From Branchiostoma floridae (lineage: Eukaryota; Chordata; Leptocardii; Amphioxiformes; Branchiostomatidae): a stretch of 64,000 nucleotides of DNA. The position numbers were made by a program, and so were the translations under genes. Below, piece by piece: positions 8,301 through 55,100 of the stretch. The stretch spans positions 10,790,175 through 10,854,174 of the forward strand of contig NC_049982.1 in the NCBI RefSeq assembly GCF_000003815.2, written 5' to 3'. The notes below the pieces were generated by a model. It made no database searches, was not told the origin of the DNA, and worked only from the letters and a program-made list of their open reading frames with translations. Within the stretch, counting starts at the first letter, position 1, and each line of letters begins with the position of its first letter.

Positions 8301-11300
8301 TCTACAACAAGAAAGAGGAGGTAAGGATGCTTTGTGATTTGCTCTTTGTCATTGTTATTACGGTCATTACAGTTGTAGCATTATACACAGTGCAGCCATT
8401 GTATGATTTGTCATGGGAATGACTGAAGATGGAATGTATGTACAAATGTACAAACTGTGTCATCATATTGACAGCAACATTCTGTACATTCACAGTTGGT
8501 CGCTGACTTCCAGCTGATGTTTGACAACTGTCTGGACTACAATGGACCCAACAATGGTAAGTGCAATACAGCCTAGACAAAAGCTTTGAGCCATTCATGT
8601 CAAAACATAGAGAAAAGGATGGTCAAAAACTCACTGCCTTCAAGTTGATAGTGTATTCTTCCATATGCTGGTGTTTTTGCACATTCCCCTCCCGTATACT
8701 TCAGGAGACAAACCTTACCCCTTAAACAAACTTGAATGTTGAATCTTCTTGCATTGCAGAATACACAGAGATGGCACAGAAACTAGAGAGGCTGTTCAAG
8801 AAGAACATGAGGAAAGAGTTTCCTAAAGAAGAGGCAGAGAGTGACGATGAATACCAAGTATGCCCTGATTCCCTACCTACAAGTTGTGTATTGCGTCTTG
8901 TATTTACCACTAACTCTACATCAGGGAAGTACTTGTGATGTTGGCTCATAACTTCAGTGTTGTTTGTTATTCCAAGGAAGAAAGTAACTAAAGTCAAAGT
9001 CAAACTACAAGATTCCATTGAAAGGTCCTTAAAGGCTAACTGTGAAGTAACAAAGTACAAAATGTAATGATAAAGATTGTAAAGATTACACAATGTTCCA
9101 CAGCTGTGTCTTACTATGTGATTCCTTGTTACAGGTTGGAGAAGATGAGATACCTGTCTCAGAGATCAAGAAGAAGAAAAAGAAGCCAGGTGAAAAGGGG
9201 CCATCTGGTCAAGTAGTACTTTATCACAACAGAGACCAGGAGAGTCCACCCCTTGGCACGGAGATGGGCGACTCCTACAACAAAGTGCAGCCTCCGTATC
9301 CCTACATGCCCAACGAAATGCAGATCCACCGAATGGCCAATGGTACTGTAATATCCCAGGCTCCTCCTGGGGGGATGAACTATCCACCAGGCCACCCCAT
9401 GGCTAGACCTGGTAATCCGTACATGCAGCCTAACGGAGGTCCCAGGCCTGGAATGTACCCCCGTCCTGTTCAAGGTTATCCGCCCCAGCACCCAGGGATG
9501 CCCCAGGATGGGCGCAACGCACTCCATGATGCCTTCCTGAGGCACCGTATGGGGAAGGAGGTGGGACAAAGACCACCTGGGCCCTACGACCCCAACAGGC
9601 CCCCAAACCTGCCGTACAGTAATGGTCCCGGCCAAGGCAACCCTATGTACAGAATGCCTCCGAATATGCCTCCCAATGGGTACCCCCAACAACAGGGTGT
9701 TCCACCGTATGCTGCTAATAGCCCTCAAGTTCCACCCAATCAGAGACCACCAAACATGCCGCCTTACAGCGGACAGCAGTGGATGCCCCCGGCCCCGGGG
9801 CAGGGCCACCCCCACCCCCATGACCAACGTAACGCCATGATAACTCAGGGTCAGAGACCGCCTCAGCCTGGTGCGGGGCAGCCCCAGCCAGGATACCCCC
9901 AGATGCAGCAACGGTACCCCCAGATGATTGACTTGAACCAACATTCCAGAGAGTGGGTCAACAGACCGCAGGCCCCGCCTGGGGCACACCACCCAGGCCA
10001 GCCCCCGCAGGGACCACATCAGGTTCCTCCTCAGGGGCCACCACCAGGGGTGCCGCAGGGGCCACATCCATCGGCACCTCAGGGGCCGCCTCCTGGGCTC
10101 CCCCACCCTCAGATGCAGGGGCCACCGCCAATGTCTCAGGGAAACTACATGCAGCAAGAGAGAAGGTATTCTCTGGTGAACCCAGCTGCCTTTGGGCCCC
10201 AGGGGCAACCCATTGTCCCATCCAGCCAGCCTATGGCCCCCTATCCCCCGGCAAACCTGCCTCACAACAGCAATAACACCACACCGTCTGACACAACAGG
10301 AGATCCAAGCTCTAGGCAAACACCGGAGGGTCAGCCAGGTGAGGGCAAAGATGAAGCACAATCAAAATCAGAAGATACTGGCAGTGAAAGCAAAGATAAG
10401 GGTACTCCTGCAGAGGGAGAAGTGTCTATACCAAGGGCTGGAAGTCCCCAAGATAACCAACAGGTCAAGTCTCCATCAGCTGAAAAGCAAGAGGGCAGTG
10501 CTGACAGTAGTGGAGACAAAACAGAGGGACAAGACAGTCAGACATCAGAAACATCAAATATTGGAAATAAAGAAGGAAAGGAGGCAGGGGCTCAGGAGAC
10601 GGACAGAAAAGACAGCCCAGCACCCCCACGGGAAGGATCAGCAACACCGTCAGCACCTTCTGGTGTTCCCACTGCCCACCCAGCTGGAACTCCTCCTCAT
10701 CCCCAGATGCAGGTTCCTGCCAGTGGCTCAGCCATGCCAGGTGTGCAGGCACCACAGATGCCATCACATCCCATGCAGAGATACCAGTTTCCTCCCCACT
10801 CTCAGATCCCGCCACAGTACCGGATGCCGCCAGGCAGCAGTGCCGGACATGTGCCACCGGGAGTGGGAATGCACAGGATGCCCATGCACCACGGCATGCC
10901 CATGAGGCCGCAGATGATGGGTAACCCCCCACACAGGATGGGCTCGTCCCCACACATGATGTCTCCACAAGTGCCTTACCACCACCCCCACATGCCCCAG
11001 GGGCAGTACGGGTCCATGCCACAAGGGCAGGACAGACCAGCCGTTCCCCACCCAGGGGTTAGCCAGGCCCACCCAGGGGTCCCCATGGGGGAGGGCCCGT
11101 CCCCGGCTCAGCCACCCAGGCAGGAGTCCCAGCTGGTGAAGCTGCTGATGAGTCCACGTCTGCCGTCCGCGCCCCGCCACCTCCCCATGGGCCCCTCGCA
11201 ACCCCACATGCCACCCTACGGCTCTCCCGGCCCTTACTATGGCAGACATCCCGAGGCAGGCTTTGCGAACGGCGTACAGAGCCGGTTACCGTTCAACACG

Positions 11301-12192
11301 GCCACCCCCACCCAACCACAGACCGCCTCACCCATACACAGAGTAGCCAACCCAGCAGTGTCTGGGTTTAGCACAGCAATGTCTGCGGCAACCTCCACAT
11401 CCACAGAGGCAACATTAAGCACAGTAGCAGTGTCCAGTTTGATAGATGGGGATGATGATATCGGGTTTGATGACAAACCCAAACCGAAGCCGGTGGAACC
11501 GGCAGCTACAGAGGATGACAGTAGATCGAGCAGCCCAAAAGAAATCCTAGATTTAGACAGCCAACCAAAACCCAAGCCTGCCATATCAGCAGCCCCGCCT
11601 TTCTCATTCCACAGCCAATCGGGGGCCATGCCTCAGCCAATCAACCAATCGCAAGCGTCGCCTCATCTGGTGAACCAGTTACAGCGGGGCATGAATGGAC
11701 AGATGATGGGTGGTTACCCACGTCCAGGCATGCCCATGCAGGGCCTCCCGCCCAACCACCCCATGTACAGGGAGATGTACGCACAGCAGATGTACCAGGA
11801 ACAGCAGATGAAGAGACCCTATGCCCCTCAGGTAAATATTTCTCTGGTCACGCAGTGAACATTTTTAGTGTGTGCTGCCTTGTTCATTGTATCATACTAA
11901 CTGATTTTGTTTATGTCTCTTTTTGGCTAAGTGTCATATTTGGTTGCAATTGGGAAAGATTTGATGTTGCTTGAGCCTTGTAGAAAGTCCTTATGAAATG
12001 CAGATTTCTGCACACACCAACCTTTGTTACTCAGTATCATCATGTCACTTCATTGTTCCACATCTTCACTCTCCCCAGTATCCAGTAGCTACTCAGTTTG
12101 CAGATCCCAAGCTTACCCCTCAGCCAACCACCATGAGCTACCCAGCAGCTAGCTACCAGCAGGTCAGGAATGGTGAACTGCCACCACAGTGA
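2360..12192 (+). CDS. CECR2: CECR2-like bromodomain chromatin-remodelling subunit (5' partial, 14 exons)
   Basis: Exons: 2360-2543, 3978-4120, 4445-4564, 5122-5277, 5516-5660, 6568-6657, 7092-7242, 7580-7759, 7938-8029, 8255-8320, 8496-8556, 8760-8857, 9135-11831, 12079-12192. Phases agree throughout and give about 1431 residues. The order matches CECR2: a WHIM/DDT-side segment ([22 protein letters not shown]), the [10 protein letters not shown] and [14 protein letters not shown] motifs, a Lys-rich stretch, an acidic Ser-rich stretch, [20 protein letters not shown], a charged coiled-coil-like segment and a bromodomain. A very long Pro/Gln/Met-rich tail follows. In vertebrates CECR2 partners the ISWI ATPases SNF2L/SNF2H and its bromodomain reads acetyl-lysine; nuclear action here is inferred from that. 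The N-terminus is outside the window. The donor after 5277 (GTCAGA) is weak. Confidence 0.9.
7938..8857 (+). other. Bromodomain-encoding exons of the CECR2-like gene
   Basis: Four exons (7938-8029, 8255-8320, 8496-8556, 8760-8857) encode one bromodomain. The WPF shelf ([10 protein letters not shown]), the ZA loop ([20 protein letters not shown]) and the acetyl-lysine-binding Asn in LDYNGPNN are all present. Helix C ([17 protein letters not shown]) is followed by the acidic EEAESDDEY, as in CECR2 proteins. Every residue normally needed for acetyl-lysine recognition appears intact, so the domain is predicted to be functional. Confidence 0.9.
9135..11831 (+). other. Giant low-complexity Pro/Gln/Met/His-rich exon of the CECR2-like gene
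   Basis: One 2697-base exon with no stop codon. It starts with a Lys run ([10 protein letters not shown]). It then codes for about 330 residues rich in Pro, Gln, Gly and Met, about 150 residues rich in Ser, Glu and Lys ([14 protein letters not shown]), a second Pro/Met/His-rich block, and an acidic patch ([16 protein letters not shown]). No folded domain is recognisable. The tail is probably disordered, like the C-terminal half of vertebrate CECR2. Long open frames on the opposite strand are by-products of the base composition. Confidence 0.85.
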
Positions 12193-20857: not shown

Positions 20858-23800
20858 ATGGCTTCCAAAGCTGAGGAAACCATTCCCATGGAGCCAACAG
20901 CAGCCCCACAGCAACATGTGGTTGTCGTGGAAACCGTTGACACAGATGCCACACCCTGCTGCTGTTGCTGTGACGACGGCTGTGAGGAGGAGAACAAAGA
21001 GCGCGGGAACTGGTCCTGTAACTTCGAGTCCATCCTGGCGAGCATTGGCTACGCCATCGGACCGGGGTACCTGTGGATTATGCCATACCTTATTTACCGG
21101 CATGGAGGTGGGTGATGCCATAGCTGAGTATGTCATAGTGAGGCATAATGGGACCGCTTCTAGATCTCCTCATCTTCATTCAGTTTAACCCTCAAAGTAT
21201 ATGGTAAACATGCATATTTGATGTATTTGAAGGTGCCTGTATGAGTCGGTAAAATTGGCTGCTTTGCTATGAATTTTGTGATTCTGATGAAAGTTCATTG
21301 GTGTGATATAGATACAAACTTAATGTCTTGTACTATCTTCTTTACCTCACCAGGTCTCTTTCTCCTTGCATACTTCTTCTCGCAAATGTTCATTGGTTTC
21401 CCCATTGTCTACCTGGAGATGGCGCTGGGACAGTACACGTCACAGGGACCTATCCGTGCATGGAGAGGGGTGCCCATACTGCAGGGTAAGTCACATGGAC
21501 TAATCCGTGCATGGAGAGGGGTGCCCATACTTCAGGGTAAGTCACATGGACTAATCTATGCATGGAGAGGGGTGTCCGTACTGCAGGGTAAGTCACATGG
21601 ATTAATCTATGCATGGAGAGGGGTGCCCATACTGCAGGGTAAGTCACATGGACTAATCCATGCATGGAGAGGGGTGCCCATACTGCAGGGTAAATCACAT
21701 AGACTAATCCATGCATGGAGAGGGGTGCCCATACTGCAGGGTAAGTCACATGGACTAATCCATGCAAGAAGAGAGGTGCCCATACTGCAGGGTAAGTCAC
21801 ATGGACTAATCTATGCAAGAAGAGAGGTGCCCATACTGCAAGGTAAGTCATGTGGACTAATCCATGCATGGAGAGGGGTGCCCATACTGCAGGGTAAGTC
21901 ACATGGACTAATCTATGCACGAAGAGAGGTGCCCATACTGCAAGGTAAGTCATGTGGACTAATCCATGCATGGAGAGGGGTGCCCATACTGCAAGGTAAG
22001 TCATGTGGACTAATCCATGCAAGAAGAGGGGTGCCCATACTGCAGGGTAAGTCACGTGGACTAATCCATGCATGGAGAGGGGGGGTGCCCATCCGGCAGG
22101 GTAAGTCACATGGACTAATTCATGCATGGAGAGGGGCACCCATACTGCAGGGTAAGTCAGAGGGACATATACGTACATGGAGAGGGGTGGCCATACTGCT
22201 GAAGCCGGGTAACAGAATGATTAGGTGCTAGCCTAGCTAAACCATAGGTCCCTGCTCTTTGAGAGCTGACCAAAGCGAACAAGGCTGGACTCCAGGCTAA
22301 CTAAAACATGTTTGTAGCATCGCTTCTACAGTTCAGGACCAATCAACCCCTGACAAGAGACTTTGTAGTGCATGCTTACCCTTGGGCCTGAGCCATGATT
22401 TTTTTCCACCCATCATCCAGCCATCCCCTCAACATCCAGCACCCTTTTAGGGTTGGTATTGTCATTTGCCAACAAATACCTGGATGCGGTTGGCAGACTT
22501 TTTTCCTTTAGGCTGTTGTCCTACTAGGGTCTGGCTCCCAGGGTAGGCCTTGGGATGGTACATTCAATAAGATTCTACAAGGAGTTATTCCAAGTTTGAC
22601 TTTGGTGGTGCATTTAAATGTTGTTTTATTTCACAGGAATTGGGGTAGGCATGGTTGTGATGTCGGCCATCTTCTGTATCTACCACAACGCCCTGCTGGC
22701 AGAGATGCTGTACTACATGTTCTATGTTCCTGGGGACCTGAGCAGCACGGCATCATGTGACAACTACTGGAACACTGACCGCTGCAGTGAGTTTCATTTG
22801 TTTGACTGAATGCTAATTCACAGCCTTTAGTTATAATGTCTAAGTAATTAGCAAGAGCTGTCTTAATTGCCTATCCAAACTTTGATTAGTAAAAAGTGCA
22901 AGCTCAATTGGATCATATGTTTTGCTGGATCCATTTGTAAACCACATTGATTTCAAGGAAGCCTATTCTCCTGCCAGTTGATTTTAAATTGCAATTGAAA
23001 TTGGTGTATGATTGTGGCAAGATAATTATAGATTGCACATTGGGAAGGCCACATGGCCCATTGAAAAGCATATGCCTGATGTGCATACATTGTATGCCTT
23101 GACTCTGACTGTTTGCCAATTTTGAGCCTCCTCTCCTCTGAGGTATAAAGCTCTGTACAATATTTAGCAGGTTGGCTGGTGCAAAGAGGGTCCCTTTTTT
23201 TCCAGTACCATCCCATTGCCCCCGGCCCCTCTCCCAGTGCACCAGCCCTATCCTGCTGAATATTGTACAATCCCTTATCATGGGTTATTACTCAAATTGA
23301 CCTGGTAATGTTATGCTCTGTTACAGTGAGTGGATGTCGTCAAGAGGTTGTGGAATATGATTATGATGGTGGTTATGAACCGTACAACTACACACGTCTG
23401 ATTTGCGGTGGTCTGGAGGCACCAGCAATGGAGTACAGGCAGTAAGTATAAAAGTACCCAAACTCTGTTCTGCCTACTTTGTTTTGGTGACACTCTGAAT
23501 ACTTGTTTCCGTAGAGTCAATTCTTAACATGGCTAATTGTTTTAACAGTCACATCCTAGAGGAGTTAGAATTAAACAAGAATTGAACATTGAAATATTTG
23601 ATCTACATTCGCATTTGTTACTTTTTTACTAGTAACATTGACTATCATAATTCCACCGGGTGTCGCCACCTCAAAAAAACATTAGTAAAGAGGTCTTCCC
23701 ATGATTGTCTTGAACATAGAATGTTAAATATCTTAAATATAATACAATTCAGATATTTAGGTGTTGAAGACAATCTTGAGAAGGCCTCTAAAACAACGTT

Positions 23801-35167: not shown

Positions 35168-38100
35168 ATGGCGTCCCGACCTGGAGCAGAGATGCCTTCT
35201 GTCGCACCTAAATACACCGTCCCCCCAGCTCAAGTGGTTGTCATGGCAACGGACAACACAGAAACCACGCCCTGCTGTTGTTGCTGTGACGACGGCTGTG
35301 AAGAGGAGAACGAGGAGCGCGGGAACTGGTCCTGTAACTTTGAGTCCATCCTGGCGAGCATCAGCTACGCTATCGGGCCGGGGTATCTGTGGGTGATGCC
35401 CTACGTGATTTCCGGAAATGGAGGGGGTACGTATGGGTATTATATACATGGATGAGACATATTCAATCATTGTTAAGTATTCTTCCTGTGTGTTCATTAA
35501 AGGTTAGCCATCCAGGCATTCAGGTACGCCCTAAAGCAATACTGAAGCAAACAGATATGAGGCAGCATCCACTACCGTTCAGTGTCACTTACGAAAGGTG
35601 GTGGATGCTACCTGAAATGTACCGTTTCCAAAATCACATCTTGTTGCTTCATTGACTGCTTTTTGACTACTCTTATTCTTCCAGTATTTTTGGTAATAAA
35701 AGCTATCTGGGATTCTCAAGATTAGAAACACATGCTGCCACAATATGGCTACTGTAATAAAGATACATTCTGTCTAACGATACACCCCTGCCACCCGACC
35801 GACCGAGTATCAGTGACAGACAGAATCCTTCCTCTACTAAAGACTATATCTAATTTTCCTTGCACGCGGGAAACCATTGTAATTAGCTAAAACGTGTCTA
35901 CCTCACATCACCAGGTGCATTCCTGGCCACGTACCTGGTCTTGCAGATGTTCATCAGCTTCCCCATTGTCTACCTGGAGATGGCGCTGGGACAGTACACG
36001 TCACAGGGACCTATCCGTGCATGGAGAGGGGTGCCCTTACTGCAGGGTAAGTCACATAGACTAATCTATGCATGTAGAGGGGTGCCCATACTGCAGGGTA
36101 AGTCACATGGACTAATCTATGCATGGAGAGGGGTGCCCACACTGCAGGGTAAGTCACATAGACTAATCTATGCATGTAGAGGGGTGCCCATACTGCAGGG
36201 TAAGTCACATGGACTAATCTATGCATGGAGAGGAGTGCCCATACTGCAAGGTAAGTCACGTGGACTAATCCATGCACAGAGGCGGCGGCACCAAATTTCG
36301 TTTGGGGGGGGGGCGAACTTTTACTGACAGCATGTTGCGACACCAGTAGCGCCGTGGTCGCTACCCGTCGCGAGGAGAGGGGTGCCCATACTGCAGGGTA
36401 AGTCACATGGATTAATCTATGCGTGGAGAGGGCTGCCCATACTGCAGGGTAAGTAACAGGGACATAAACGTGCATGGAGAGGTGTACTCATTATAATACT
36501 GCAGGGTAAGTCACACACCACACTAAACCACTTTAACCGCCCGAAACCAGTGTTTCTTTTCTTTTTTTACAATGGCATAACTGTAGTTCTGATTTCCAAA
36601 GCGCAAAGGGTAGTATTTGTGTGTCATCGTAACTGTAACCTCTGGCAAAAAGATGTCGGTTACTTAAGAGTTTAGAGTCTTTAATAACCTTACAGGCATC
36701 GGTGTTGGAATGGTTGTGATGTCGGCCATCTTGTGTATCTACTACAACAGCCTGGTGGCGCAGATACTGTACTATCTGTTCTACGTCACTGGGGATTTAG
36801 ACAGAGCAACATCATGTACCAACATGTGGAACACTGCTGGATGCATCAACTCGAGTTCCTCTGCAGCAAGCGAGTACTTGAAGTAAGCAAAAGCTATGAT
36901 TGCTACAACGAATTGTTATATGTGTACTTCAAATCTAATATACATTTGCATAATTCCACCAGGTGCCGTTATACCGCCACCTCAAGAAACGTTGTTATAG
37001 AGGCCTTCTCAAGATTGTCTTCAACACGTAAATATCTGAATTGTATGACATTTAGGATATTTAACATTCGGTGTTCAAGACAATCCTGGGAAGACCTCTA
37101 TACTAACTTTTTTTAGGTGGCGGTATTATGGCACCTGGTGGAATTATGGAATTATGATAGTCGATGTTAGCTAATTGATATGAGCTTAATTAGTTTGCTT
37201 AAGTATCTGATTATACGGGAGGAGGACATAGTTAAAAAGTAAATGATTTTACCTTTACCCAATTTCTCTTCCATTTTGACATTTTTTTTCGTTCCACCAG
37301 TAATTATGTCCTCCAGCTGAGTAACGGCATCGACAACATGGGAGCTGTGCGAGGCCCCCTGGCGGGATTTCTCATCCTTGCATGGCTACTGGTAGCAGTC
37401 GCTCTCAGCTTTGGAGCCAAGTCTCTGGGGAAGGTTGTAATATATTTCAATAGTTACAATAATCAGCGGTTTCTGTTGCCATCAAAGCAATATAAGTCAT
37501 TCTGTTTTCAACTCTGTTGTTGTTGTCTCTATATCCGCTTGGTTCGTCGGATAATGGTCACATGTGCTACTCACTAAAATACACTTGAATTGTCTAAGTA
37601 TATTGCACAATTAGATATTTCTTATAACAGTAAATGTTACCATATAGTACAGGGGACATTTGGCAACAAACTGAAAATGTGCCTGATCCGTCCCTACTTT
37701 TGCAATCATTATTACATGTCTGGTGTTTCCCCGTACCTACCTTACCTACCTAGTCCCTTGACCTACAGGTCGTTGGGGGGACAAGGTGGACATGAAGATA
37801 GAGAGTTGCCTCCAGGTTCGTCTCTCCCTAGCCAGGGTTAATCTCTCCTGTAGGCTGAGGGCTACCTTGTATCATGTTGATATTATATGCCAGTTGAAAC
37901 GAGCAAAATATTTCAACAGCAAAACGTCTCTTGCACTCCTCAGGTTGCGTACGTGACAACTCTCGTTCCCATCGTCCTGATTGTCGTCATGCTCGTCCGT
38001 GCCGTGAGTTTGCCGGGAGCTTCTGACGGGCTTTTTTACTTGTTGGCGGTTGGTGTAGGGGTGAGTTGTGATTCACGGATCATAGTAGAACATACGATTC

Positions 38101-43802: not shown

Positions 43803-44987
43803 CTAATTATGAGTTTCGGCATTTTTTCTTATGACAAAGCAGTCTTTTATATATTTGCCTATTTTAGCATTGTGGGAGTTATTACATCTGAATATATAAT
43901 CAAATCTGTCTGTATCATTGAGTCTCTTAAAATCTGTTGTATTTGATTCGAGGAATGTGAATAACTCATTACGTGAAACATTGTACCTACTGCACATCAT
44001 GACAAAGTGAAATTCATCTTCAATTTGCTTTGGACAGAATGGGCAAAACCTTTGGTCAGGCGCTACATTATGATACCTGCCTGTTTCTATGTTCAATTTA
44101 TGACTGCTGATTCTTAACTGGGTTATCGCTTTACGAATTTCAAAGTTATATATATCATAAAGGTATGTCTCTTGTTCATAACACTTTTTCGATTTGTTAA
44201 GAAAAGACAGTTTTGAATTGCTTTTTATGCGAGCAAACCACTCCTGTATAAATGTATCTTGTAGACGGTAGCGAAGTTGGTCGGCAATGTAATCTAGTTT
44301 ATACAACTCAGGTTTCACCCATATATGTCCAAAGCCATGGTAATTGAGAATGTCTTTAACATGATTAATCCAGTCATGATCACCAGTAAATACAGTATTG
44401 TATGCATCGCGAAGCAGAGAGTCCTCATGTAAGTTTACCAAACGGTGCCAGTATTTAATGAGCTGAATTTTAGCAGATATCATAATAGGAAAAGTTCCTA
44501 ATTCTCCTCGCACGCCGTCATTAGATGATTTGGAGTGGATTCCAAGTAGAAATTTTTGAAAGCGTATATCAATTATGTCAAATTCCGGTATGACTGTTGG
44601 GAGGCGTGTGTTATCAATAGAAAAGTCATCCTTTTCTGGATTAAGTCCAGACGCATATTTCAGAAACATGTCTTTATCTGAACTTCTTTCAAAATTAATG
44701 ACATAGGTATGAGTCAGATCAGTACAAGTGCTCTTTCGAATAAAAACTGGAATGCTATCCTCAATCTGAACTTTCTTCAACATAAGGGAGAAAATATACT
44801 TTGAAGAAGACATAGGGATGTTTTTTGAAACATTAAGTTTCAGTGTTTTGGAGGCATGGTCAAAGCATGTTAACTCAGATCCATACAAAAGGATAGGTTT
44901 AACAAATTTGTCAAAAAGGCTTTTACCTAACTTTATTGAAATATTTTCCGATGTTAAAAGTGATTTTAATTTGAATATAGCTCTCAT
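43803..44987 (-). pseudogene. LINE C-terminal fragment (thumb/connection and zinc-finger-like region)
   Basis: A 394-codon frame begins with the region that normally follows the reverse-transcriptase domain (KPILLYGSELTC). It ends in a Cys/His motif (FCPFCPKQIEDEFHFVMMC) typical of LINE C termini. It belongs to the same element as the frame at 45233-46702, which lies in another reading frame upstream in the transcript. Confidence 0.8.
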
Positions 44988-45232
44988 AGCTTTGGTTTTT
45001 AGAAACTTTCTGGCCGTTTAAAGTTACCTGAGGACGTAAGAGGTATACCAAGGTAGGTGTAACTGTCTGTAACGTCTATTACATTATTATAAATATAAAA
45101 TTCTTTTGACATCTTCTTTGTAGCACCTTTAGAGAAAATAATAATTTTTGTTTTAGACACATTGACAGAAAGTTTCCAAGTATTACAATATGTTTCCAGA
45201 GTATTGATGCACTGTTGGAGTCCATGCTTAGA

Positions 45233-46702
45233 TTATGAAATCAAAGCAAGATCGTCTGCCCAAGACAAACAATTGATGGATTTAGAAGTTAAATTAGCGG
45301 CATCACATTTGTCACGATCAAAGCATTGCGGCAAGTCATTAATAAATAGGTTGAATAACATGGGACTAAGGTTACAACCTTGTCTTACACCACATGTGGA
45401 AACAAAGGAATCGGATAAGCCATTCTCTACTCTAACTGCGTAATTAACATTTGAATACATAGATCTCAATACATTGAAAAAGTTCCCATTGATGCCATAA
45501 TCTAATAATTTATAGAATAACCCATCGCGCCATACACTATCAAAAGCCTTTTTCATGTCAACAAAACAAACAAACAATTTACCTTTCTTTTTGCGTGTAT
45601 ATTTATCAATAAGGGATTTTAGAATAAAAGCGTTGTCGGCGGTTCGGCACTTCTTTCTAAAGCCAAATTGTGTGTTGGCTAATAGATTATTGTTTTCTAC
45701 AAAGTTTTGTAACCTAGTATTTAATAAAAGTGTAAACAATTTTGACAGACAACTGGAGAGAGCTATTCCTCTGTAATTATCAACGTTGGACTTATCACCA
45801 GATTTAAAGATTGGAGTAAGAATGCTAGTGTTCCAATTAGGCGGAAATGTGCCTTCAGTAAGGATAGTGTTGAAAAGATTAACCAATGACAGGCAAAACT
45901 GCTTAGAATTTGATCCATGTTTAAGCATGTTGTTTGAAATAGAATCTATGCCACAGGCTTTTCCAGTTTTTAATTGTTTTATACCAACTAATATCTCTTT
46001 TGCTGTAAAGGGAACGTCTAGCAAAGTGGATGAATTTTTATTAGGCTGTTCTAACCGTTCTAACCGTTCATTGATTATAGTTTCGAAATCTGTGTTGAAG
46101 TGTTTGTTCTTTGTTAGGTCATTCAATCCTTTGAAATGTTCTGTCCATTCATTATTGTTGATATTAGGGTCTGTAGAATTTTTTTTTGTTTTCCCGTTAA
46201 CTTCGTTGTCGAGAAAGTTTAATAGAGACCAAAATTCTTTTGGATTCTTTTCATTCATATGCTCTAATTTGGACAAAATATCAGCCTTATATTTACGTTT
46301 ACGTTGTTTGATAATTCTTTTGTATTCTTTTAGAGTTGAGAAATATTTGATCCTAATTTCCTGAATCCATGGTTTTCTTTTTAGTTCTAGCGAAAGTCTT
46401 TTCAGTCGTTGGCGCAATGACCAGCAACATTGATCAAACCAAACATTATTCTTTTTTACTTGTGTAGATTTCTTAACTCGTTTTCTATGTCTCACTTTTA
46501 GGGCCTTTTTTGAAATATCTAATAGAATGCATGACAGCAATGTTTTAACATTATTATCATTATTCCATGGTTTGGATGTGCGAAAAGATGGGTGCAGGGG
46601 AAGCAGGGTTCTACAAACCATCCCAAAAATACAAACCTCGAACCGCCATAGGTAAATAGCAAAAGAAGGTCTAGATGAATTGAATCTTCTCGAGAAACCC
46701 AA
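45233..46702 (-). pseudogene. LINE reverse transcriptase fragment, interrupted
   Basis: The 489-codon frame contains reverse-transcriptase blocks: GKACGIDSISNNML, PIFKSGDKSNVDNYRGIAL, QFGFRKKCRTADNAF, FVDMKKAFDSVWRDGL, GVRQGCNLSPMLFNLFINDL and the catalytic WADDLALIS. A stop codon follows the catalytic block directly. Homologous sequence goes on after it, and a frame change near 45015 separates it from the C-terminal part. The copy is therefore dead. Confidence 0.85.
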
Positions 46703-46743
46703 CGTTGGGAAAGGCTGTGGAAACTAGAGCTTGTCGGCCCTGA

Positions 46744-47635
46744 TGCCTAGGTTACACATAGCCGACTTCGGCTCCCGAACACTAGCCGACTCTTAGCCGA
46801 CCCAAGTCGGCAGAAGTTCGGGAGTAGTCTGACCAGTTTAGGCCACGCCTATTTTTTTAGCGCCGAACATGTCCCGAACATCTCCCGACCAGTAAATGAC
46901 TTACTCTCAACTGTGTCCTGAATGCTGTCCAACCTATTCCCTACCATGCCGACCTCTAGCCGCAGACTGCCGAATCACTAATGATTGATTCCCACCCGAT
47001 TGCCGACCCTCTCTCGACTTGAAATAGACATAATCAGCGATTTTCAAAAGAGTGCTCATTTTCGTTTTTAATCAAGATTATCCTTTCCTCTATTTTGTAA
47101 ACATCACCAAGAGATCAAATTTGGATCACAGATAGCTCCAATACGGTATTTATGGTTCTTTTTGTTTTTGGCTGGATGTCGGTCGTGTGAAGTTCGGGAG
47201 TGATTCGTCTACGTCCTGGCAATAACCTTTTTGCTTGGGAATGAGTTAGCAGCGATTTTTCTACGGTCTTGGGGTGAATCATTGGTTAGTTGGAAACAAG
47301 CTGGGAGTAAGTCAGCAGTGTTTATGGCGTGTTTAAGATTTAATTTGACTGCTGACTTACTCCCGAACACCAACCGAACACTAGCCGACCGTGCCGAACA
47401 CCAGCCGAACACCAACCGACCCATTCCAGACCTGCCGTTCAGAGGCGAATGTTTTGAACATTTCAAGACATTCGGATGGAGCAGCCGAACACCAGCCGAC
47501 TCAGCCGAACACCAGCAGAACGCCAGCCGATTCAGCCGAACACCAGCCGACTACAGCCGACTAGCTCCCGAATCACTCCTAAACCATAGTCGGGAGAGAG
47601 TCGGGAGCCAAATTCGGCTATGTGTAACCTAGGCA
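46744..47635. mobile_element. Non-autonomous TIR transposon, copy 1 (892 bp)
   Basis: The terminal inverted repeats start TGCCTAGGTTACACATAGCC and match over about 33 of 35 bases. They are flanked by a 3-bp duplication TGA (46741-46743 and 47636-47638). Subterminal regions repeat GTCGGGAG and GCCGAACACCAGCCGACTC units. There is no transposase. The 3-bp TNA target duplication recalls PIF/Harbinger, which prefers TWA, but I cannot assign the family firmly. Confidence 0.85.
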
Positions 47636-52150: not shown

Positions 52151-55100
52151 ATGGCATCCCCACCTCGAACAGAGACGAGTTCCTCTGCCGTACCAACACG
52201 CACCGTCCCATCCCACGTGGTTGTCATGGCAACGGACAACAAAGAAACCACGCCCTGCTGTTGTTGCTGTGACGATGGTTGTGAAGAGGAGAACGAGGAG
52301 CGCGGGAACTGGTCCTGTAACTTCGAGTCCATCCTGGCGAGCATCAGCTACGCTATCGGACCGGCATATCTGTGGGCGATGCCCTACGTGATTTCCAGAA
52401 ATGGAGGAGGTACGTATGGGTATTATATACATGGATGAGACATATTCAATCATTGTTAAGTATTCTTCCTGTGTGTTCATGAAGGTTATGCATCCAGGTA
52501 ATCAGATACGCCCAAAAGCAATACTCAAGCAATGCTGCCAAATGGATATGAGGCAGCATCCACTACCGTTCAGTGTCACTTACGAAAGGTGGTGGATGCT
52601 ACCTGAAATGTACCGTTTCCAAAATCACATCTTGATGCTTCATTGATGGCTTTTTGACTACTCTATTCTTCCAGTATTTTTGGTGATAAAAGCTATCTGG
52701 GATTCTCAAGATTAGAAACACATGCTGCCACAATATGGCTACTGTAATAACGACGATACATTCTGTCTAACGATACACCCCTGCCAGCCGACCAACCGAG
52801 TATCAGTGACAGACAGAATCCTTCCTCTACTAAAGACTATATTTCATTTTCCTTGCACGCGGGAAACCATTGTAACTAGCTGAAACGTGTCTACCTCACA
52901 TCACCAGGTGCATTGGCCACGTACCTGGTCTTGCAGATGTTCATCAGCTTCCCCATTGTCTACCTGGAGATGGCGCTGGGACAGTACACGTCACAGGGAC
53001 CTATCCGTGCATGGAGAGGGGTGCCCATACTGCAGGGTAAGTCACATGGACTAATCCATGCATGGAGAGGGGTGTCTGTACGGCAGGGTAAGTCACCTAG
53101 ACTAATCCGTGCATGGAGAGGGGCGCCCATACTGCAGGGTAAGTCACATGGACTAATCTATGCATGGAGAGGGGTGCCCATAATGCAGGGCTGTGACTTA
53201 TGGTAATGCCTAGGTTACACATAGCCGACTTTGGCTCCCGAACATTAGCCGACTCTTAGTCGGCAGTAGTTCGGGAGTAGTCTGACCATTTTAGGCCACG
53301 CCTATTTTTTAGCGACGAACATGTCCCGAACATCTCCCGACCAGTAAATGACTTACCCTCGACTGTGTCCCCAATGCTGTCAAACCTATTCCCTACCATG
53401 CCGACCTCTAGCCGCAGACTGTCGAATCACTTCTGACTGATCCCCAACCCATTGCTGACCCTCTCTCGACTTGAAATAGACGATTTTCAAAAGAGTGGTC
53501 ATTTTCGTTTTTAATCAAGATTATCCTTTCTTCTATTTTGTAAACATCACCAAGAGATCAATTTTGGATCACAGATAGCTCCAATGCGGTATCTATGGTT
53601 CTTTTTGTTTTCGACTGGATGTCGGTCGTGTGAAGTTCGGGGGTGATTCGTCCTGGCAATAGTATTTTTGCTTGGGAATGAGTTAGCAGAGATTTGTCTA
53701 TGGTCTTGGGGTGAATCAATGGTAAGTTTCGGACCGTCCATGATGACAAAACTTATCCGTTTCAGCCGGCCTAACCGATAGTAACTGATAGAACAGTTTC
53801 ATTTTTTGCATCATGAACGGGGCCTAAGTCAGTAGTTGTTTATGGCGTGGTTAAGATTTAAGCTGACTGCTGACGTACACCAACCGAAGACTAGCCTACC
53901 GTGCCCAACACCAGCCGACCACCAACCGACCCATTCCAGAGTTGCCGTTCAGAGCCGAATGTTTTGAACATTTCAAAACATTCTGATGGAGCAGCCGAAC
54001 ACCAGCCGACTCAGCCGAACGCCAGCCGAACGCCAGCCGACTCAGACGAACGCCAGCCGACTCAGCCGAACGCCAACCGACTACAGCCGACTAGCTCCCG
54101 AATCACTCCTAAACCATAGTCGGGAGAGAGTCGGGAGCCAAATTCGGCTATGTGTAACCTAGGCATAAGTCACAGTGACTGATTCATCCATGGAGAAGGG
54201 TGCCCATGCTGAAGGGTAAGTCACATGGACTCATCCATGTATGCTCGGATAGGAGTACTGTACCCATACTGTAATGTAAGTCACAGAGACTACCTATGTA
54301 TGGAGTATGATTATCTATGTATGGAGAGGGGTGCCCATACTGCAGGGTAAGTCGCAGAGACCAAACCGTGCAACCGTGTGCATCACCAATCAAACCACGG
54401 TGTTTCCCTCTACAACGCCATGCTTGATCTACAAAGCGCATTTCTTTAAGAGATGAATTTGTGTGACATTGTAACTGTAACCTCTGGCAACAAGATGTCG
54501 GTTTTTTGAAATGCAAGTTATAACCTTGCAGGCATCGGCGTAGGAATGGTTGTGATGTCGGCCATCGTCTGTATCTATTACAACAGCCTGGTGGCGCAGA
54601 TACTGTACTACCTGTTCTACGTCACCGGGGATTTAAACAGAGCAACGTCATGTGCCAACGTGTGGAACACTCCTGGGTGCGCCAACTCGACCTCCCGTCC
54701 TTTTGCAGCCGAGGAGTACCGTCAGTAAGTATACATTCAGCTATTATGCGTAGTACTAATCATGTAAGCTAAATTTCTGTGCGTATTTGAATCTGCGATA
54801 GGGAAAAAAATATATCAAATTTGTAATTTTACCTAACTTACCTAACTTACCTTATCCACCAGTAATTATGTCCTCCAACTGAGTGACGGCATCGGCAACT
54901 TGGGGGCTGTGCGAGGCCCCCTGGCGGGATTTCTGATCCTTGCATGGCTGCTGGTGGCAGTCGCTCTCAGCTTCGGAGCCAAGTCTCTGGGGAAGGTAAT
55001 ATACATTGCAATATTAACCGTTACCAGCAGTGTATTTTTCCAACAAAACAATTAGCAAATCATTTAAAGACAAGGAAAACAAGTGACCGTAGGTAACAAA

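What the first reader, a model, noticed from the sequence alone, without database searches (positions are those of the whole stretch)
21436..22210. A 5' splice site has become a coding minisatellite: 14 in-phase donors
The unit contains exon end, donor and intron start, and is repeated every 51 bases (one step 54). All donors leave the same phase, and the array has no stop. Using donor n would add (n-1) x 17 residues to the cytoplasmic TM2-TM3 loop of a transporter. This could be a tunable loop-length system, a splicing decoy array, or a neutral expansion. The one length change in the array is a multiple of three, which fits selection for frame but does not prove it.
Basis: partly seen in the sequence, partly recalled or inferred. 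Interest (0 to 1): 0.92.

Follow-up and report, generated by a model that had tools for sequence, protein, structure and literature searches.

The report
Repeated splice donor in amphioxus transporter
In a lancelet transporter gene the end of one exon, with its splice signal, has been copied 14 times in a row; comparison with sister genes suggests that only the first signal matters and that these repeats help the sister genes overwrite one another's DNA.

Summary
In detail: window 21439-22199 holds a 51-bp array (one step 54) with 14 in-phase GT donors and no stop. The tunable-loop reading is not supported. The genome matches Branchiostoma floridae by gene coordinates, and exon-intron-boundary minisatellites, "mirages", are described in amphioxus. 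The array recurs at the same boundary in tandem paralogues B and C and in gene D on another contig. D's usual period is 50: its sites run through all phases and only site 1 of 11 leaves an open frame. Donor 1 is the conserved SLC6 intron position. Intronic units show no significant synonymous excess. Nine further exon-anchored donor arrays were identified in this genome; 2 of 9 periods are divisible by 3. Unexpected: in exon 2 the last 29 codons show 0 of 22 synonymous differences between A and B or C, while codons upstream are near saturation, and units of A and B are as alike between genes as within, although flanking introns do not align. This suggests gene conversion anchored on the array. 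Use of the donors in RNA is untested.

The parts
20858..21107 (+). Gene A (SLC6, GlyT2-like), proposed exon 1
   Evidence: Open frame with a G|GT junction; spliced protein matches SNF PF00209 from profile position 1
21354..21485 (+). Gene A exon 2, ending at donor 1 (phase 1)
   Evidence: AG|GT start and G|GTAAGT end; gap-free SLC6 alignment across the exon 2-3 junction
21439..22199 (+). Mirage array A: 51-bp unit, 14 GT donors, one 54-bp step
21486..21491 (+). Donor 1 (GTAAGT), the proposed working donor
   Evidence: Conserved SLC6 intron position in 12 of 12 array-less SLC6 exons examined; Pfam continuity
21398..21485 (+). Exon 2 tail (88 nt), identical to C and with one mismatch to B: inferred gene-conversion tract
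22637..22785 (+). Gene A exon 3 (TM3)
   Evidence: acag|GA acceptor; SNF match continues
35915..36046 (+). Gene B exon 2
36000..36511 (+). Mirage array B: 8 donors, 51-bp unit, steps of 147 and 57 included; in-frame stop between donors 5 and 6
36696..36881 (+). Gene B exon 3
52908..53036 (+). Gene C exon 2
52990..53190 (+). Mirage array C: 3 intact donors, then a fourth unit without GT
53206..54166 (.). Insertion that splits array C, with 72-nt inverted arms at its ends (78% complementary)
54167..54352 (+). Decayed remainder of array C after the insertion (3 donors, steps 60 and 71)
54532..54724 (+). Gene C exon 3

Best explanation
This is an amphioxus "mirage": a minisatellite built by tandem duplication of the last 47 bases of exon 2 together with the first bases of the donor. 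Shown: the array lies at one boundary in four paralogous SLC6 genes; nearly every internal unit keeps a donor; only the first unit is conserved as an exon; period and frame are not kept in D. Inferred: splicing uses donor 1, the conserved SLC6 intron position, and everything downstream is ordinary intron. Copy number changes by unequal exchange or slippage; within A, units 8-9 and 10-11 look like a duplicated pair. The in-phase property of A follows from a 51-bp founder unit and is not selected. Also inferred: the array and adjoining exon tail serve as homology for ectopic gene conversion between the tandem paralogues, which keeps units of A and B alike and has overwritten the last 88 nt of exon 2.
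For: Same array at the same boundary in A, B, C and D. Frames open through exon 3: A 14 of 14, B 5 of 8, C 3 of 3, D 1 of 11. Donor 1 gives one continuous SNF match (102.9 bits); donor 2 splits it into two stretches (93.7 bits). The three solved-structure alignments printed run without a gap across the junction. 12 of 12 array-less SLC6 exons examined end there with an ordinary GT donor and 0 of 12 has a tandem array over the exon end. Exon units differ by 0-6% among the four genes, intronic units by 10-18% between genes. No coding constraint detected among 20 intronic units. Prior papers describe such arrays; PMC3087553 says that Adh3 data and globin RT-PCR suggest regular splicing. Conversion: 0 of 22 synonymous differences A-B and A-C next to the array; upstream 8.0 of 8.2 for A-B, or 0.79 (A-B) and 0.73 (A-C) over the first 13 codons in the gapped count; exon 1 0.45 and 0.53; exon 3 0.38-0.53; chance of 0 of 22 at 0.45 is 2e-6. 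A-B unit distance is 0.097 against 0.096 within A, while the last 200 bases of introns 1 and 2 of A and B do not align.
Against: No RNA evidence was available for these genes. All donors in A are near-identical, so sequence alone does not say why donor 1 should win; in classic duplicated-donor experiments (recalled, not looked up) the donor nearest the acceptor is often used. The core GGTAAGT is slightly poor in variants in A-C (1 against about 3.7, P=0.06). All length changes in A and B are multiples of 3. Two of five array-less control pairs (L044-L051, L050-L052) also have their lowest synonymous divergence at the exon end, though those pairs are young throughout, so some nucleotide constraint on the exon tail is possible. 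A chimeric assembly could mimic the tract.
Confidence: 0.8

Rival explanations
1. Tunable loop: alternative use of donors 1-14 in A adds (n-1) x 17 residues (one more beyond the 54-base step) to the TM2-TM3 cytoplasmic loop.
For: 14 of 14 frames open in A, 5 of 8 in B, 3 of 3 in C; donors strong throughout.
Against: D keeps 11 sites (10 still GT) with usual period 50 and 1 of 11 open; B and C arrays are interrupted; no significant synonymous excess; the insert splits the SNF match; other exon-anchored arrays ignore frame (2 of 9 periods divisible by 3).
Confidence: 0.05
2. Splicing decoy or regulator: downstream donors bind U1 and slow or modulate splicing at donor 1, or protect the transcript from premature polyadenylation.
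For: Many intact donors persist in four genes; slight lack of core variants in A-C (P=0.06).
Against: In D donor positions vary as freely as the rest (4 variants against 3.1 expected, P=0.83, six equal-length units); 12 of 12 other SLC6 genes examined do without.
Confidence: 0.12
3. Nucleotide-level constraint rather than conversion: the exon 2 tail is an exonic splicing enhancer, so its synonymous sites are conserved in all paralogues.
For: D, on another contig, also has low tail divergence (4.0 of 21.7); two of five control pairs are lowest at the tail.
Against: The step from 0.00 to 0.98 between neighbouring blocks in A-B is too sharp for a gradient of constraint; the array-less pair L043-L048 is flat at 0.62, 0.55, 0.57; intronic units of A and B are as similar between as within genes.
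Confidence: 0.2
4. RNA structure: the repeated unit folds the array so that downstream donors are hidden.
For: Array A folds better than 20 plain shuffles, z -4.84.
Against: Against tandem arrays of shuffled units z is -1.43 for the A-C unit, -0.71 for the exon unit and -0.15 for the D unit: the excess comes mostly from repetition itself.
Confidence: 0.03

Closest known systems
Amphioxus mirage minisatellites (Adh3, globins BflGb6 and BflGb9, TnC, PGBD5)
   Different: Donor side with 14 donors, against 6 and 3 acceptor-side units in the two BflGb6 haplotypes and one duplicate in BflGb9; shared by four paralogues; linked here to a synonymous cliff in the neighbouring exon. RNA and polymorphism not tested here.
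SLC6 (sodium:neurotransmitter symporter, PF00209) genes
   Same: A and D were matched to SNF, B and C by identity to A; nearest solved relatives are 'Transporter' 9km2 and GlyT2 9wbr; intron at the same place in 12 of 12 other members examined
   Different: 0 of those 12 has an array at that boundary
Gene conversion among tandem duplicates; minisatellite recombination hotspots (both recalled)
   Same: Sharp block of synonymous identity, repeat units concerted between genes
   Different: The block adjoins an exon-spanning array; hotspot activity not measured

Membership tests
Amphioxus mirage minisatellite | Tandem duplication of an exon-intron boundary | tested here: met
   Exon homology runs from +5 to +51 of the intronic unit; TRF
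Amphioxus mirage minisatellite | Splice signals retained in many units | tested here: met
   14 of 14 sites in A are GT, 13 of them GTAAGT
Amphioxus mirage minisatellite | Found in amphioxus | tested here: met
   SNF hits at C7:214065, C12:2986572-2991942 and C12:3087282-3111381 lie 3-34 kb from published B. floridae GlyT positions Chr 7:197986, Chr 12:2983693 and Chr 12:3077852
Amphioxus mirage minisatellite | Does not disturb regular splicing | not testable with these tools
   No RNA data held
Amphioxus mirage minisatellite | Length instability | tested here: inconclusive
   Copy number differs between paralogues (14, 8, 3+3, 11); one assembly only
Selected coding minisatellite / tunable loop | Frame kept in all family members | tested here: not met
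   D: 1 of 11 open; B: 5 of 8 open
Selected coding minisatellite / tunable loop | Excess of synonymous change among units | tested here: not met
   10 of 27 against 8.2 expected, P=0.24
SLC6 transporter | SNF domain | tested here: met
   A exons 1-3: 2.5e-29; D exons 2-3: 1.4e-21

The most novel reading that the evidence does not exclude
Mirage arrays are not passive: they act as anchors or hotspots for gene conversion that rewrite the neighbouring exon end across paralogues. They may also arise by a donor-coupled process, because the duplicated unit typically ends inside or just after the donor hexamer (exon homology resumes at intron base +3 to +8 in 8 of 11 independent arrays).
Probability: 0.25. 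Interest if true: 0.68.

Novelty: new member of a known kind. Interest (0 to 1): 0.42.

Why it matters
It gives a natural test of how a spliceosome chooses among up to 14 near-identical donors in one transcript, with four paralogues that differ in frame and copy number as built-in controls. If the conversion reading holds, exon-intron-boundary minisatellites would be a route by which repeats keep parts of duplicated proteins identical.

Tried and rejected
Branch-point or recursive-splicing idea: internal A-C units carry ACTAAT, but the D consensus unit lacks it (CCTATC), so it is not a shared element; rejected.

RNA fold: z -4.84 against plain shuffles fell to -1.43 or less against tandem-shuffled controls.

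Donor conservation: weak in A-C, absent in D.

Genome-wide counts of triple donors: AGGTAAGT x3 138 matches against 75 for the reversed pattern; AGGTGAGT x3 1324 against 39. Only the first places are listed, and many listed rows belong by eye to a dispersed 51-bp repeat, so these counts do not measure mirage frequency.

Survey: I picked arrays by eye from the listed places, so they are no random sample. 24 loci were read (10, 8, 6). Nine got a gene: GOST_TM, folate carrier, PDS5, PITP, THOC7, FSIP1, Kelch, dynein AAA_7 (PDB hits weak, best E 0.005), and L063, dynein by PDB only (2e-6; no Pfam hit at 0.1). The two dynein arrays lie 7.8 kb apart on C1 and are probably one gene, so nine arrays in perhaps eight genes. 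L055 is part of the Kelch array and L066 resembles the THOC7 unit. L062 looked like a UDP-glycosyltransferase by eye but had no Pfam or PDB hit. L059, L060, L061, L064, L065, L067, L068, L069, L071, L074, L075, L077 (12) gave no accepted gene; of these only L071 (one hit below cut-off) and L075 (none) were searched.

Searches used wrong exon ends; one search is the corrected run.

Rows dropped: one search listed 13 D sites; the last two (TTAAGC, GTTACT) were not counted. One search used 20 intronic units (unit 1s, B6, B8, all D and the decayed C units left out; the extra GGG of A13 left out for column counts). One search used 6 equal-length D units for the donor test and left B6, B8, D6, D10, D11 out of the distances. 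One search used 10 of the 12 control SLC6 exons (L045, L047 left out) and printed only the 5 pairs with at least 27 of 42 identical residues; its blocks are ungapped, so its A-C figure upstream (7.7 of 8.2) is shifted by C's missing codon, and one search gives the gapped value 0.73. The SNF search scored 82 of 320 candidates and did not list A-D, so the 12 controls are a part of the family.

Full report
Observation. The window holds a 51-bp tandem array at 21439-22199. It carries 14 GT donors; 12 of 13 steps are 51 bases and one is 54, so all leave the same phase. The coding frame has no stop between donors 1 and 14, and splicing any of the 14 donors to exon 3 leaves an open frame. One minus-strand frame is open over the same stretch as well. 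The intronic unit is homologous to the exon from base +5 to +51. It is therefore 47 bases of exon tail plus GTAA, and with a period of 51 nearly all its codons are inherited from the exon. The missing stops are thus weak evidence for coding.

Where it is. G000 is a 513-Mb assembly. SLC6 hits in it lie 3-34 kb from the B. floridae GlyT, GlyT2.1 and GlyT2.2 positions printed in Table 1 of PMC8699752 (outline and passages seen), so the organism is very likely Branchiostoma floridae. Gene A is an SLC6 member: exons 1-3 match SNF at 2.5e-29, and the best solved relatives are entries named 'Transporter' (9km2) and GlyT2 (9wbr). That paper lists three amphioxus glycine transporters, on Chr 7 and Chr 12 in B. 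floridae; A-D lie on C4 and C10 and are therefore other SLC6 genes.

Paralogues. The same array lies at the same boundary in B (8 donors) and C (3 donors, then an insertion with inverted arms at 53206-53277 and 54095-54166, then 3 decayed donors). A fourth copy, D, lies at C10:144055-144676. Six of D's 10 steps are 50, the others 49, 51, 53 and 65, so its sites fall in all three phases (steps 50, 50, 49, 50, 53, 50, 50, 50, 51, 65). Frames open through exon 3: A 14 of 14, B 5 of 8, C 3 of 3, D 1 of 11 (D was read from exon 2 on). In D only donor 1 works for the protein, yet 10 of its 11 sites are still GT.

Which donor. With donor 1 the protein gives a single SNF match of 102.9 bits over profile positions 1-131; with donor 2 the match falls to 93.7 bits in two stretches, the better one ending at profile position 82. 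In the three solved-structure alignments printed, the junction QG|IG is gap-free. Twelve of 12 other SLC6 exons inspected end at this place with an ordinary GT donor, and 0 of 12 has a tandem array overlapping the exon end. The first unit is conserved among A-D (0-6% different) while intronic units differ by 10-18% between genes. All this singles out donor 1. RNA is needed to prove it.

Frame and donor selection. Among 20 intronic units of A-C there are 27 distinct variants, 10 of them synonymous in the coding frame against 8.2 expected (P=0.24), with no significant lack of new stops. The donor core has 1 variant against about 3.7 expected (P=0.06); in D the donor 9-mer has 4 against 3.1 expected (P=0.83).

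Known kind. [quoted passage not shown] PMC3902484 (passage) adds TnC and PGBD5. The Adh3 paper itself is not held.

Same kind elsewhere in this genome. From triple-donor patterns I chose and read 24 loci. Nine have an upstream exon identified by Pfam or PDB that ends at the first donor: GOST_TM (period 59), folate carrier (61 and 64), PDS5 (55), dynein heavy chain (36), dynein AAA_7 (43), PITP (32), THOC7 (37, first step 31), FSIP1 (61) and Kelch (51). The two dynein arrays are 7.8 kb apart and probably in one gene. Two of 9 periods are divisible by 3, where chance gives 3 of 9. In 8 of 11 independent arrays (SLC6 counted once, the unidentified L062 included) exon homology resumes at intron base +3 to +8; the exceptions are PDS5 (+48), L062 (+19) and FSIP1 (+26). 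If seams were spread evenly, about 16% would lie that close (P=4e-5 for 8 of 11, and 0.02 if all 12 unidentified arrays are counted as misses, with an assumed even spread). Arrays without a recognised exon may differ, so this is only suggestive.

Gene conversion. Exons 2+3 of A and B are 80% identical, and the last 200 bases of introns 1 and 2 of A and B do not align. Yet intronic units of A and B are as similar between genes (distance 0.097) as within A (0.096). In exon 2, A and C are identical over the last 88 bases and A and B differ once; the next 32 bases hold 12 mismatches in both comparisons. At synonymous sites the last 29 codons show 0 of 22 differences in A-B and A-C. Upstream of that, A-B shows 8.0 of 8.2 over 13 codons; the gapped count over the first 13 codons of the exon gives 0.79 for A-B and 0.73 for A-C. 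Exon 1 shows 0.45 and 0.53, exon 3 0.38-0.53. Zero of 22 at a rate of 0.45 has probability 2e-6. The array-less pair L043-L048 is flat (0.62, 0.55, 0.57), and L044-L049 and L049-L051 are highest at the exon end; two other young control pairs are lowest there, so some constraint may add to the effect. D shows 4.0 of 21.7 against A, B and C. The simplest account is ectopic conversion between the tandem genes, with array and exon tail as the homologous stretch. The direction, and whether the array raises the rate, are inferred.

Verdict. The feature is real and striking, but it is a member of a described amphioxus class, and its in-frame perfection in copy A is not a general or selected property. 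I saw no description of a link between mirages and a conversion tract in the adjoining exon, or of seams lying at the donor hexamer, in the listings of four searches of the held library and the passages read; the library lacks most subscription papers.

Noticed in passing
G000, many places, e.g. C1:29239918, C2:19739373, C2:29656162: A dispersed 51-bp tandem repeat (AGGTGAGTAACGTGTATTTCCTTTGATTACAGACCAGGTAAGACACCGTAC and variants) holds donor-like and acceptor-like motifs in each unit and makes up many of the listed triple-donor matches; perhaps carried by a mobile element.
   Followed up: no
window 45233-46723 (-) and 43803-45017 (-): A reverse-transcriptase frame (RVT_1, 3.3e-28) between genes B and C, with a second long frame downstream without Pfam match at 0.001; LINE-like by look.
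   Followed up: partly
window 9051-11858 (+): A 935-residue open frame rich in proline and glutamine without Pfam match at 0.001.
   Followed up: partly
window 47363-47562 and 53992-54092: Related CAGCCGAACACCAGCCGACT-type short tandem repeats at two places, the second inside the insertion that splits array C.
   Followed up: no
window 36276-36374: About 98 bases of unrelated GC-rich sequence interrupt array B and bring the in-frame stop.
   Followed up: no
L078 and L055 (G000:C2:10582300-10584800): A Kelch gene carries a donor array of more than 20 units of 51 bp, open in the coding frame over the 81 codons printed: a second case for testing donor choice.
   Followed up: partly
L063 and L076 (G000:C1:221400-230100): Two donor arrays with different units (36 and 43 bp) 7.8 kb apart on C1, both after dynein heavy chain exons: probably two mirages in one gene.
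   Followed up: partly
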